Positions 6,913 to 64,000 of a stretch of DNA of 64,000 nt are shown here, piece by piece (the stretch's first letter is position 1; each line of letters starts with the position of its first letter). The notes under the pieces were generated by a model. It saw only the letters and a program-made list of their open reading frames with translations, was not told the DNA's origin and made no database searches. Origin of the DNA: Pseudonocardia sp. T1-2H (GTDB lineage Bacteria > Actinomycetota > Actinomycetes > Mycobacteriales > Pseudonocardiaceae); contig NZ_JBBPCL010000001.1 of NCBI RefSeq assembly GCF_038039215.1, forward strand, positions 6,510,001 to 6,574,000, read 5' to 3'. The position numbers and the translations under genes were made by a program.

Positions 6913-7670
6913 TCAGAGGGCGGCGAGACCGGCGATCTGCGAGGCGAGGCTCGCGGCGTCCGGAGCCGCGACCGCGTCCGCGGCGCCGACCTTGTAGTCG
7001 TTCCCGTCGAAGTTCTGGTCCTGCGTCGACGGCAGGGCCGGCAGCGCCGGGGCACCCAGCTCGGGGAGCGCCGGGGCACCCAGCTTCGGCAGCGCGGGCG
7101 CGCCGAGCGCGGGCGCCGGCAGCTCGGGCAGGGCCGGCGCCGGGAGCTCCGGCCCGGCCAGCGGGATGCTGCCGGCCGGGGTGGCCAGCTCGCCGGCGAC
7201 CTGCGGGGAACCCGGGGCTCGGACAGCGACGGGGCCTCGGGCAGGGACGGGGCCCCGGGCAGCGAGGGGGCCTCGGGCAGGGACGGGGCCGCGGGCAGCG
7301 CGTCCAGGCCGGGGAACGCAGGCGCAGCCGGGAAGCTCGGGGGCGCCCGGAGCCTCGGGGAGGCCCGCGGTCCGCATCGAGGCCGGCACCGCGGCGTCCT
7401 CGGGGCCGGTCTGCGTGCTCACGGTCGGCATCTCGAAGTTGAAGAGCCCAGGCAGGGACATCGAATCGGGCGAGGGGAGCTCGGGCGCGGAGAGCTCCGG
7501 AGCCGCGAGGTCCGGCGCGGCCAGCTCCGGCGCCGCGGGGAGCCCGGCGCTGCGGGCAGCTCCGGCAGCGACGGCGCGGCGAGGGCCTGGCCCGCGAAGC
7601 CGACGCCGATGGCGGCGACTCCCGCAATGGTGGCCGACGTACGCAGCGTGCGCCTGGCGAGACTGCTCAT
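6913..7670 (-). CDS. Leu/Pro/Ala-rich secreted protein (reading frame broken three times)
   Basis: ATG at 7668-7670 begins a clear Sec signal peptide (basic LARRTLRTS, hydrophobic IAGVAAIGVGFAGQ, cleavage at ALA-AP). The mature part is built of short Pro-Glu/Ala-Leu-Pro units (ELPAP, GAPALPELG, APSLPEAPSLPG) and ends with an ordinary segment containing QDQNFDGNDYKVGAADAV. To read this continuously the frame must change near 7543, 7328 and 7212, each time by one base next to a G or C run. The repetitive composition is kept across all three breaks, which favours sequence error over decay. Function unknown; low-complexity exported proteins of this kind may be cell-wall associated. Divergent from the hydrolase at 7926. 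Confidence 0.55.
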
Positions 7671-7925
7671 CTCTGGTGGATCCTTCCGATCGGGGGTCTC
7701 GGAAAACGATGGTGCTTCGGGCGGCCCAACGAGGGTCGGGGCGTCGAGATGTGGAATATCGCGCTCTGGAGGCGACCTTCAGCCTTTCGAGTGACAAAGT
7801 TCCTGCAACCCTTGAGGTCGCCACCCGTACGGATTACATGCTTCAGCGTGAGGTCATCGGCGCTCTGCCATCACCGTGAAGGGAAGTGAAGGATCATCAC
7901 CGGCTCGGCGCACCTGTCGCGGATC

Positions 7926-9020
7926 ATGGTCGGGTTGGGCATCGGGGCCGGTGCGGGCCTCGGCCTGGGCCTCGGCATCGGGACCCACTACGCGACGGTC
8001 CTGTTGGACACCCGCCGCTCCGTCCTCTACCCGGAGCGGGTGCTGGGTGCGGGCGAGGGCACGGTGACCCTCGCCCGGAGCAGGCTCGTCCTGCAGCCCG
8101 GGGTCTGGGGCCTGCGCTGGTCGGAGGGCCTGGCGGTGCTCGGGCCGGTGCTGCGCGACGACAAGCGCGGCGTCGTCCGCCGGCTCCTGTCCGGGCCGGT
8201 TCCGCCGGTCGCGCCCGCGGTCGTCGACGCCGGGCCCTACGACCCCGATCCCGGCGCCCACGGCCTGGCGTTCGACGAGGTCGTGATCGACACCCCGCTC
8301 GGCCCCGCGCCGGCCTGGGAGGTCCCCGCGGCGGGGACGACCTGGGCGATCGCGATCCACGGCCGCGGCGGCACCCGGCGCGAGGCGCTGCGGATCCTGC
8401 CGGCGCTGCACGCGCTCGGGTTGCCGCAGCTGGTGGTCAGCTACCGCAACGACCCGGAGGCCCCGCCGAGCCCGGACGGCTACTTCCACCTCGGGGACAC
8501 CGAGTGGGAGGACCTGGAGGCGGCCGTACGGTACGCGGCGTCCCGCGGGGCGCAGCGGATCGTGCTCGTCGGCTGGTCCATGGGCGCGGCCATCTGCGGT
8601 GCGTTCCTGGACCGCTCCGCCGAGGCGCACCTCGTCGACGCGATGGTGTGGGACGCGCCGCTGGTGGACTGGCGGGCCTGCCTGCGCCTGCAGGCGGCGA
8701 ACCGGCTCGTCCCGCCCGCGCTGGTGCCTCTGGCGACCGCGACGGCGACGCGGCGGATCGGCATCGACTTCGACCGCTTCGACCTGCGGCGGACCCCGCC
8801 GAAGCACCGGCCGCCGACCTTCATCGTGCACAGCGGCCCGGACACGGCGGTCCCGGCCAGTTCCAGCCGGGCCCTGGCGGCGGCGGGACGCGCGCTCGAC
8901 TGGCCGATCCGCTACCTCGAGGTGCCGGGTGTCGAGCACACAGCGGCGTGGAACGCGGACCCGGAACGCTACGAGCAGGCCGTGACCGCGTTCCTGCGCG
9001 ACGCCGGGGTCGTGGCCTAG
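7926..9020 (+). CDS. Alpha/beta hydrolase with membrane-anchor-like N-terminus
   Basis: 364 residues. A glycine-rich hydrophobic N-terminus (GLGIGAGAGLGLGLGIG) is followed by an N-terminal extension and an alpha/beta hydrolase core. Seen in order: AIAIHGRGGTRREAL (oxyanion loop), VLVGWSMGAAI (nucleophile elbow with the catalytic Ser), FIVHSGPDTAVP (probable catalytic Asp) and VPGVEHTAAWN (catalytic His). Esterase- or peptidase-type activity is expected; the substrate is unknown. An in-frame stop at 7887 limits the 5' end and 7926 is the first ATG, but no strong ribosome-binding site precedes it. Its stop overlaps by three bases the stop of the convergent CwsA-like gene. Confidence 0.8.
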   Translation: MVGLGIGAGAGLGLGLGIGTHYATVLLDTRRSVLYPERVLGAGEGTVTLARSRLVLQPGVWGLRWSEGLAVLGPVLRDDKRGVVRRLLSGPVPPVAPAVVDAGPYDPDPGAHGLAFDEVVIDTPLGPAPAWEVPAAGTTWAIAIHGRGGTRREALRILPALHALGLPQLVVSYRNDPEAPPSPDGYFHLGDTEWEDLEAAVRYAASRGAQRIVLVGWSMGAAICGAFLDRSAEAHLVDAMVWDAPLVDWRACLRLQAANRLVPPALVPLATATATRRIGIDFDRFDLRRTPPKHRPPTFIVHSGPDTAVPASSSRALAAAGRALDWPIRYLEVPGVEHTAAWNADPERYEQAVTAFLRDAGVVA

Positions 9021-9469
9021 CGGAGGCCGCGGGCGGCGTCCGCACCCGGGCCGACGACGTCCGTGGGCGGGATCGTCGACGGCGGTTCCGCGACGTCGTT
9101 CACCGAAAGCTCCTGCGGGCGGCGCGACAGCACCACGTAGGCGATCCCGGCGAGCACCGCGGCGACGAGGCCACCGGCGGCCACCCAGCGCCACCAGGCG
9201 ACCGGCGTCGGCTCGGGCTCGATGCGGCGAGCCAGGTCCTTCCGGACGGCCGTGACGGCGTGGTCCAGCAGCGTGCCGGACTCGTCCAGCAGGCCCTTGG
9301 CCTTGTCCGCGGCCCTCTCGGCCAGCACGGGGGCGTCCTTCTCGATCCGCTCGACGACCTCGTGCGCGACCTCCTCGACGGTGCCGCCGAGGGTCGAGAG
9401 AGCGGCTCCGGCCTGCTCGCGGGCCCGCCCCAGGGCCTCGTGGGTGGTCGTGCCGATGCTCCTGCTCAT
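9017..9469 (-). CDS. Single-pass membrane protein in the CwsA (Rv0008c) position
   Basis: 150 residues: a long charged helical N-terminal region with coiled-coil character (EEVAHEVVERIEKDAPVLA), one membrane segment near residues 96-118 (WRWVAAGGLVAAVLAGIAYV) and a short Pro-rich tail. ATG 9467-9469 has GAGGTCC upstream. Mycobacterial CwsA, a partner of CrgA and Wag31 in polar growth and division, has the same topology and length and lies at the same place, divergent from ppiA with crgA nearby. I see no strong sequence signature, so the CwsA assignment rests on topology and gene order. Confidence 0.55.
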   Translation of the reverse strand: MSRSIGTTTHEALGRAREQAGAALSTLGGTVEEVAHEVVERIEKDAPVLAERAADKAKGLLDESGTLLDHAVTAVRKDLARRIEPEPTPVAWWRWVAAGGLVAAVLAGIAYVVLSRRPQELSVNDVAEPPSTIPPTDVVGPGADAARGLR

Positions 9470-9515
9470 GACCGGACCTCTTCCCGCGTGGGCGTGGACC
9501 GCCACTCCTGGCACG

Positions 9516-62958: not shown

Positions 62959-63008
62959 GCAGGAAAGCCGTCTTCCCGCCGGATCCGGCGGGAAGACGGC
63001 TTTCCTGC
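62959..63008. terminator. 50-nt perfect palindrome, strong terminator
   Basis: A perfect inverted repeat of 25 bp per arm centred on GGATCC (62981-62986), 13 bases after the actP stop. Almost no loop is left when fully paired, so RNA would form a very long hairpin. It is expected to stop transcription in both directions. Confidence 0.88.
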
Positions 63009-63066
63009 CGTCCGGGGCCGCGTGCGCTCACGGCGGGCTGACGGGGGCGCGTGGCAGGATCGGGGT

Positions 63067-63393
63067 ATGAGTGCTGTCCCGTCCGTGACCGTGGCCGACC
63101 TGCCCGCCGACGCCACGATGCTCGACGTCCGTGAGGCGGACGAGTGGGCCGCCGGCCGCGCGCCGACGTCGGTCCACCTGCCGATGTCCGAGCTCACCGC
63201 CCGGATCTCCGAGATCCCGGACGCCGAGCCCCTCTATGTCGTGTGCCGCTCCGGCGGCCGCTCCGCCCGCGTGGTCGCCTACCTCGCCGGGCAGGGCTAC
63301 CCCGCGGTGAACGTCGACGGCGGGATGCAGGCCTGGGCCGGTCAGGGCCGGGCGGTCGTGGCGGACGAGGGCCGCGCCCCCGAGATCGTCTGA
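63067..63393 (+). CDS. Single-domain rhodanese
   Basis: 108 residues. Rhodanese fold with MLDVREADEWAAGRAPTSVH, LPMSEL, YVVCRSGGRSARVVAYLAGQ (active-site Cys in CRSGGRS loop) and YPAVNVDGGMQAWAGQG. Transfers sulfur from thiosulfate or persulfide to thiol acceptors. ATG start. Separated from the symporter by the strong terminator; followed seven bases later by the DUF4328 gene. Confidence 0.9.
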   Translation: MSAVPSVTVADLPADATMLDVREADEWAAGRAPTSVHLPMSELTARISEIPDAEPLYVVCRSGGRSARVVAYLAGQGYPAVNVDGGMQAWAGQGRAVVADEGRAPEIV

Positions 63394-63400
63394 CCCCGCC

Positions 63401-64000
63401 ATGTCCGGCCCGAACCCGCCCGGGGCAGCCCGCCAGCCGGCCTGCTCGCGCTGCGGGCGCACCGCGCCGCCGGGCGCCGGGCCGTTCTGCCCGTACTGCG
63501 GGCGCTACCTCGCCGCGCTGGTGTGGGTGGCCGAGACACCGCCGTCGGCGCGGCGTCCGGTGCGCACGTCCCCGCGCCCGCCCTACGGGGGCCCGCCGCG
63601 CTACGCGTTCGTCCCGCGCTGGGGCTTCCCCCGGGGCCGTGGCGGACGAGCACGCCGCCCGCGCCGCCGAGCGCGATGCTGCGCGCCCGGGTCGCGCTGA
63701 GCCGGCTGGTGCCGCTGCTGTGGATCACCGCCGCCGTCGCGCTGGTCGCCGCCGGGGCCGAGACCTGGCGGTACTTCCTGCTGCTCGCGAGCCGCACGGA
63801 CGCCCTGTCCACCACGGCCGTCCGCTGGTCGGACGGCTTGGTCCGCACCGCGGGGTGGGCCTCGGTCGCCGCGTTCGTGCCCTGCGGGCTGGTCCTCGTC
63901 ACGTGGTCGCTGCACGCTCTGCAGGCCGCGGGGGACCGCACGGCCACCCGGCCCTCCCGCAGCCCGTTGACGGTCGTCCTGGGCTGGCTGGTGCCGGGGC
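63401..64000 (+). CDS. DUF4328 membrane protein with N-terminal zinc ribbon (frame break; cut by window end)
   Basis: N-terminus has a zinc ribbon (CSRCGRTAPPGAGPFCPYCG), then a Pro-rich linker. After a one-base break in the five-C run 63628-63632, the frame continues as RLVPLLWITAAVALVAAGAE, TWRYFLLLASRTDALS, and WASVAAFVPCGLVLVTWSLH, the first helices of a DUF4328 protein. The gene runs past position 64000, so the C-terminus is missing from the window. Function unknown. Possibly co-transcribed with the rhodanese. Confidence 0.7.

What the first reader, a model, noticed from the sequence alone, without database searches (positions are those of the whole stretch)
6913..63632. Thirteen single-base frame breaks in ten genes, nearly all at G/C runs
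Continuous family homology changes frame by one base at about 7212, 7328, 7543, 14820-14824, 33049-33053, 37525-37533, 38062, 38639-38643, 40710, 47104-47109, 47584-47589, 56285-56289 and 63628-63632. In eleven cases one base is missing and in two (7328, 37525-37533) one is in excess. Several are runs of exactly five G or C where six restore the frame. The genes include pknB, ogt, a LytS-linked membrane protein and a 5'-nucleotidase, and homology is intact on both sides. This points to a systematic sequence or assembly error, so pseudogene calls here should be distrusted. Strand slippage in a repair-deficient strain is the less likely alternative.
Basis: partly seen in the sequence, partly recalled or inferred. 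Interest (0 to 1): 0.75.

Follow-up and report, generated by a model that had tools for sequence, protein, structure and literature searches.

The report
Sequencing errors that flag a methylated motif
The broken genes in this soil-bacterium genome are most likely reading errors of long-read sequencing rather than mutations, and about half of them fall on one six-letter DNA word, GAGCTC, that the strain's own methylase probably marks.

Summary
In detail: at all 13 places the window differs in length, by a number not divisible by three, from the nearest relative found (Pseudonocardia MAG RYN_114, handle G041). "Systematic sequence error" is supported; "nearly all at G/C runs" is not: six sites are at G/C runs, six at GAGCTC (38062 by inference), one at neither. 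In about 208 kb of pooled alignment, 23 of 192 genes of the relative are out of frame here, 1 of 200 the other way. Six of 25 G/C runs of six in the relative are five here; 0 of 19 runs of six here are five there. GAGCTC has a 1-2 base length change in 14 of 180 sites, the other 63 palindromes in 28 of 5618; 0 of 160 in the reverse direction. The genome's one PF00145 (m5C methylase) match is 73% identical to a protein that a source names "Modification methylase SacI"; SacI cuts GAGCTC (PMC6449724 passage). Best reading: an under-polished long-read (probably nanopore) consensus with run under-calling plus modification-linked miscalls. No reads were available; platform and methylation are inferred.

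The parts
7212..7217 (-). frame break, GAGCTC class, in a protein without Pfam match (gene about 6916-7778)
7328..7334 (-). frame break, GAGCTC class, same gene
7543..7544 (-). frame break, GAGCTC class, same gene
14820..14824 (-). frame break, G/C-run class, in the first codons of a pknB-like kinase gene (kinase and PASTA domains)
   Evidence: 18 of 21 other Pseudonocardiales loci reaching the site are in one frame
33049..33055 (+). frame break, G/C-run class (a substitution lies beside the run), in a pyridine nucleotide-disulphide oxidoreductase gene
37525..37539 (-). frame break, GAGCTC class, in a DUF6474 gene
38062..38066 (+). frame break, GAGCTC class by inference (relative reads GAACTC), in an RNase_H_2 protein gene
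38639..38643 (+). frame break, G/C-run class, same RNase_H_2 protein gene
40710..40720 (+). frame break made of two length changes, GAGCTC class (the second by inference), in an ogt-like O6-methylguanine-DNA methyltransferase gene
47104..47109 (-). frame break, G/C-run class (a substitution lies in the run), in a MarR-like regulator gene
47584..47589 (+). frame break in neither class, N-terminal part of a 5'-nucleotidase gene
56285..56289 (+). frame break, G/C-run class, in a protein gene without Pfam match
63628..63632 (+). frame break, G/C-run class (a substitution lies beside the run), near the start of a DUF4328 gene; least certain of the 13

Best explanation
The frame breaks are consensus errors of a long-read assembly that was not fully corrected with accurate reads, most likely Oxford Nanopore of native DNA. 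Two sources add up. G/C runs of six or more are called one base short in about a quarter of cases. The hexamer GAGCTC is called with small insertions or deletions in about 8% of its sites, most likely because the strain methylates it. The likely writer is the one C5-cytosine methylase found in the genome (chromosome 1588561-1589622), a relative of a protein that a source names SacI methylase. Shown: the frame breaks, their one-sidedness, the two contexts, the methylase gene. Inferred: the platform, the methylation, and the recognition of GAGCTC by this enzyme.
For: 23 of 192 genes out of frame here against 1 of 200 in reverse. G/C runs of six: 6 of 25 are five here, 0 of 19 in reverse; runs of six are rarer here, 24 per 100 kb, than in G041, 31, or 22 other Pseudonocardia loci, 36. 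GAGCTC: 14 of 180 against 28 of 5618 for the other 63 palindromes (p = 1e-11), 0 of 160 in reverse; the outcomes recur, GAAGCTC three times and GAGCTTC three times among 14. One PF00145 match in the genome, 73% identical to 'Modification methylase SacI'; the motif was noticed before that search. Nanopore is described as shortening runs above four to five bases and as disturbed by methylation (PMC11649196 passages), and strain-specific methylases as producing errors at one motif (PMC10687267 passages).
Against: No reads and no record of the platform were seen. Most GAGCTC sites are unaffected (109 of 138 identical) and substitutions there are not in excess (25 of 180 against 19 of 160 in reverse). 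One of the 14 GAGCTC cases (row 12) lies in a diverged stretch and is probably ordinary divergence. Runs of six rest on 25 and 19 cases. Several breaks fit neither class: 47584, 90820/91272 and 110294, 1573. In the published Listeria case the modification errors were mismatches, not length changes. G041 is a MAG, so its own errors are unknown. The methylase's name is a source's label, and only two methylase families were searched.
Confidence: 0.85

Rival explanations
1. Real slippage mutations: the strain has lost a repair function and its runs have truly shortened.
For: 6 of 25 runs of six are one base short; replication slippage favours runs (established knowledge).
Against: About half of the sites are not at runs but at GAGCTC, which slippage does not explain; about one gene in eight would be broken (23 of 192). 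Repair genes such as nucS were not searched.
Confidence: 0.05
2. Real scars: the strain's defence locus, or a nuclease that knows GAGCTC, cuts its own DNA now and then and error-prone end joining leaves small insertions or deletions there.
For: Length changes centre on GAGCTC, 14 of 180, and a defence-type locus with a SacI-like methylase is present.
Against: Does not explain the run class; the same outcomes recur (three GAAGCTC, three GAGCTTC of 14), which is odd for end joining; about 8% of sites would be scarred, in genes too. No SacI-type endonuclease was identified in the proteins scanned; Ku and LigD were not searched.
Confidence: 0.03
3. The relative is wrong: G041, a metagenome assembly, carries the errors or an odd frame.
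For: G041 is a MAG with unknown error rate.
Against: Its genes are the open ones; other Pseudonocardia agree with it at most sites they reach (e.g. 18 of 21 at 14820); G041 shows 1 of 200 broken genes.
Confidence: 0.02
4. Same artefact, other cause at GAGCTC: the base caller fails on the unmodified word, or an adenine or N4-cytosine mark by an enzyme not found here is responsible.
For: Methylation was not measured; only PF00145 and PF01555 were searched in the genome.
Against: Similar words show no such excess: GGGCCC 1 of 167, GAGCCC 3 of 141, GGGCTC 2 of 144; CAGCTG and CTCGAG are not among the eight highest of the 64 palindromes. The one m5C methylase found is related to a protein named SacI methylase.
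Confidence: 0.15

Closest known systems
Homopolymer deletion errors of nanopore assemblies
   Same: Single missing bases in runs, broken genes, runs above four to five bases under-called (PMC11649196 and PMC12007338, passages).
   Different: Explains only about half of the sites here.
Modification-mediated nanopore errors (Listeria, PMC10687267, passages)
   Same: Strain-specific error at one short motif (GCAGC or GCTGG), in one lineage together with a methylase-encoding defence system.
   Different: There mainly mismatches; here 1-2 base length changes at GAGCTC without an excess of substitutions.
GRGCYC m5C methylation in Propionibacterium freudenreichii (PMC11649196, passages)
   Same: An actinobacterial m5C motif that includes GAGCTC, detected by nanopore.
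   Different: Here GGGCCC, GAGCCC and GGGCTC show no such excess, so the word looks narrower.
Druantia type II defence locus (PMC8565338, passages)
   Same: DruE2-, DruF2- and DruM2-like proteins beside each other.
   Different: DruG not seen in the proteins scanned; an MTaX1 protein and a Vsr-like protein lie beside the methylase; the paper reports canonical type II only from Proteobacteria.

Membership tests
Nanopore homopolymer error | runs shorter than in accurate sequence, growing with run length | tested here: met
   Against G041, not against reads: 6 of 25 runs of six short, 4 of 204 runs of five, 4 of 1016 runs of four; 0 of 19 in reverse for six
Nanopore homopolymer error | reads or platform record show nanopore data | not testable with these tools
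   no reads, no record name for the genome
Modification-mediated sequencing error | errors centred on one motif, one-sided | tested here: met
   GAGCTC 14 of 180, reverse 0 of 160, other palindromes 28 of 5618
Modification-mediated sequencing error | errors vanish on amplified DNA | not testable with these tools
   needs new sequencing
Modification-mediated sequencing error | a methylase for that motif in the strain | tested here: inconclusive
   one PF00145 protein, 73% identical to one named Modification methylase SacI; specificity not measured
SacI-type C5-cytosine methylase | C5-methylase domain | tested here: met
   PF00145, 175 bits against cut-off 22
SacI-type C5-cytosine methylase | methylates GAGCTC | not testable with these tools
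   needs digestion or methylation sequencing
Druantia type II | druE, druF, druM and druG together (PMC8565338 passage) | tested here: inconclusive
   DruE2 (in two frames), a DruF2 match lacking about the first third of the profile, and a DruM2-like methylase found; DruG not seen in the proteins scanned, the rest of the neighbourhood was not scanned
Programmed frameshift genes | frame change conserved in relatives | tested here: not met
   none of the 13 shared by G041

The most novel reading that the evidence does not exclude
The errors are an epigenetic record. They reveal, from a finished assembly and without any reads, that a DruM2-like methylase in a Druantia-type defence locus of an actinomycete writes m5C at GAGCTC. 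If general, motif-linked frame breaks in public long-read assemblies could be mined to assign recognition words to orphan and defence-linked methylases.
Probability: 0.6. Interest if true: 0.5.

Novelty: not a real feature. Interest (0 to 1): 0.35.

Why it matters
Pseudogene calls in this genome should be distrusted: about one gene in eight sampled is out of frame (23 of 192 in three chromosome regions), which by simple proportion would mean several hundred genes. As features of the living cell the breaks are very probably not real; as errors, the GAGCTC class is a new member of a known kind. It shows that a correction aimed only at runs would leave about half of the 13 breaks, and it gives a testable prediction for the specificity of a defence-linked methylase.

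Tried and rejected
Naming the strain through its two smaller contigs failed: the first 20 kb of one had no plasmid match, that of the other only partial ones (best 9% of the query). A frame-only detector without a relative was noisy: 12.3 calls per 100 kb coding here, 3.0 in G041, 5.5 in 22 other Pseudonocardia loci, and it missed several of the 13 sites; it is weak genome-wide support only. The idea that an essential gene without a second copy is broken was tested on a D-Ala-D-Ala ligase gene near 6456075 (broken at GAGCTC): a second, full-length match lies at 1303756, so it proves nothing. CC[AT]GG, GATC and most other words compared were not depleted; GAGCTC itself was (0.81 of the relative's density) and so were CCATGG (0.75, 29 against 30 raw sites) and AGCC (0.84), so depletion alone was not used. 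The broader word GRGCYC was rejected. Literature searches were limited: one search for nanopore + GAGCTC + methylat + error listed 4 papers, of which I saw passages of one (PMC11649196, which names GAGCTC as part of GRGCYC, not as an error site); one for GAGCTC, methyltransferase, SacI, 5mC (at least 3 terms) found 36, 15 listed, of which I saw passages of PMC6449724; two on Druantia methylase specificity listed one paper each, of which I saw passages of PMC8565338. PMC8011154 (Homopolish) was seen in a listing only. One search (Pseudonocardia and nanopore) gave nothing that I used.
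Full report
What the window is. It is 64 kb of a 6.64 Mb contig of a 7.0 Mb, three-contig genome, 96.2% complete by the tool's figures, 69-76% G+C in 4 kb steps. The best matches of its FtsW-like protein are Pseudonocardia, first MAG RYN_114 at 98% protein identity. That MAG (handle G041) aligns to the window in the same order from about 2.2 kb to the right-hand end, with small gaps, at 92-96% DNA identity per block.

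The observation. At each of the 13 places the alignment to G041 shows a length difference not divisible by three. They make up 14 of the 57 one- or two-base length differences listed for the window (40710 counts as two); the other 43 were not classified one by one. Translated matches of G041's open frames split at ten of the 13 sites; at 7212 and 7328 the changes nearly cancel, and at 63628 one match of lower identity runs through.

One-sidedness. With a frame model trained on 22 other Pseudonocardia loci I called genes in both genomes and asked which genes of one are out of frame in the other. Around the window 15 of 143 genes of G041 are out of frame here and 1 of 150 in reverse; at 5.65-5.69 Mb 6 of 40 against 0 of 40; at 3.3 Mb 2 of 9 against 0 of 10. 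In sum 23 of 192 against 1 of 200, Fisher p = 5e-7. The single reverse case is marginal (26 bases) and sits at a site also counted forward. One of the six at 5.65-5.69 Mb also has larger length differences. Nine of the ten genes of the finding are in the count; the pknB-like gene is not, its break being near the gene start. The gene calls are my own and unverified.

Two contexts. First, G/C runs. Where both flanks agree, 6 of 25 runs of six in G041 are five here; of 204 runs of five, two are four, two are three and none is six; in reverse, 0 of 19 runs of six here are five there. Runs of six are rarer here (24 per 100 kb) than in G041 (31) or other Pseudonocardia loci (36). Second, GAGCTC. Among 897 hexamers tested in the first set it ranked second, after CCCCCC, for 1-2 base length changes: 10 of 138, against 0 of 122 in reverse. 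In the pooled alignment of about 208 kb it has 14 of 180, against 28 of 5618 for the other 63 palindromes; reverse, 0 of 160 against 36 of 5667. The next palindrome, CCCGGG, has 7 of 314 and 8 of 327 in reverse, so it is not one-sided. The sets added after the hexamer was noticed give 4 of 42 against 0 of 38; one of these four (row 12) lies in a diverged stretch. The outcomes recur in form: GAAGCTC three times and GAGCTTC three times among the 14.

Assignment of the 13. Run class: 14820, 33049, 38639, 47104, 56285, 63628. In three of these (14820, 38639, 56285) the relative simply has a run of six; in the other three a substitution lies in or beside the run and the reading is inferred. GAGCTC class: 7212, 7328, 7543, 37525-37533, 40710, and by inference 38062, where the relative has GAACTC. 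47584 is in neither.

Do relatives share the breaks? G041 shares none.

The methylase. After the motif had been noticed I searched the genome for DNA methylases. One place matches PF00145, none PF01555; other families were not searched. The protein (353 aa) is 73% identical over 346 residues to one that a source names Modification methylase SacI, from Modestobacter italicus; most named relatives in that list are simply called DNA cytosine methyltransferase. SacI is given with GAGCTC in PMC6449724 (passage). Beside the gene lie an MTaX1 protein, a Vsr-like gene (over the Pfam cut-off, under the NCBIfam one) and, on the other strand, DruE2- and DruF2-like genes. G041 and G042 have no match to the methylase; among 23 other same-genus genomes searched only G004 (67%, nearly full length) and G021 (80%, a fragment) have strong matches, the rest weak or none. 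So it is an accessory gene of this strain.

How it most likely works. Shown: frame breaks, one-sidedness, two contexts, the methylase gene. Inferred: the assembly is a long-read consensus, probably nanopore, without full polishing; runs are under-called; GAGCTC is methylated and therefore sometimes miscalled. A parallel is documented in Listeria, where errors centred on GCAGC in strains carrying a methylase-encoding system (PMC10687267, passages), though those were mismatches.

What speaks against. No reads; substitutions at GAGCTC are not in excess (25 of 180 against 19 of 160); most GAGCTC sites are unaffected (109 of 138 identical); several breaks fit neither class (47584; 90820/91272 and 110294; 1573), nor does the junction of the two DruE2 frames, which has no G/C run of five and no GAGCTC in the 140 bases looked at; the name SacI is a label; PMC8565338 reports canonical Druantia type II only from Proteobacteria (passage), so the locus may be a variant.

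Verdict. The frame breaks are very probably not features of the living genome. The GAGCTC class is the interesting remainder.

Noticed in passing
L155 (G000 chromosome 1578001-1598000), 9218-19545: Druantia-like locus with MTaX1 protein, SacI-like methylase, Vsr-like gene, DruE2 in two frames and a DruF2 match lacking about the first third of the profile; absent methylase in G041 and G042.
   Followed up: partly
L155:16381-16520: The DruE2-like protein is split between two frames, but neither a G/C run of five nor GAGCTC lies in this stretch; it may be a true junction or a third kind of break.
   Followed up: partly
window 12211-21600: Cluster of two protein kinases, an FtsW-like protein and a PP2C phosphatase, with DNA matches in the same order in many Pseudonocardia loci.
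   Followed up: no
window 43894-47001: A 1036-residue protein that joins a major-facilitator transporter to three carboxypeptidase-regulatory-like domains, an unusual layout.
   Followed up: no
G000 chromosome, near 6456075: A second D-Ala-D-Ala ligase gene, broken at GAGCTC here and open in G041; a full-length match exists at 1303756.
   Followed up: partly
window, other small length differences listed: 43 further one- or two-base length differences to G041 were not classified; some may be further errors near gene ends.
   Followed up: no
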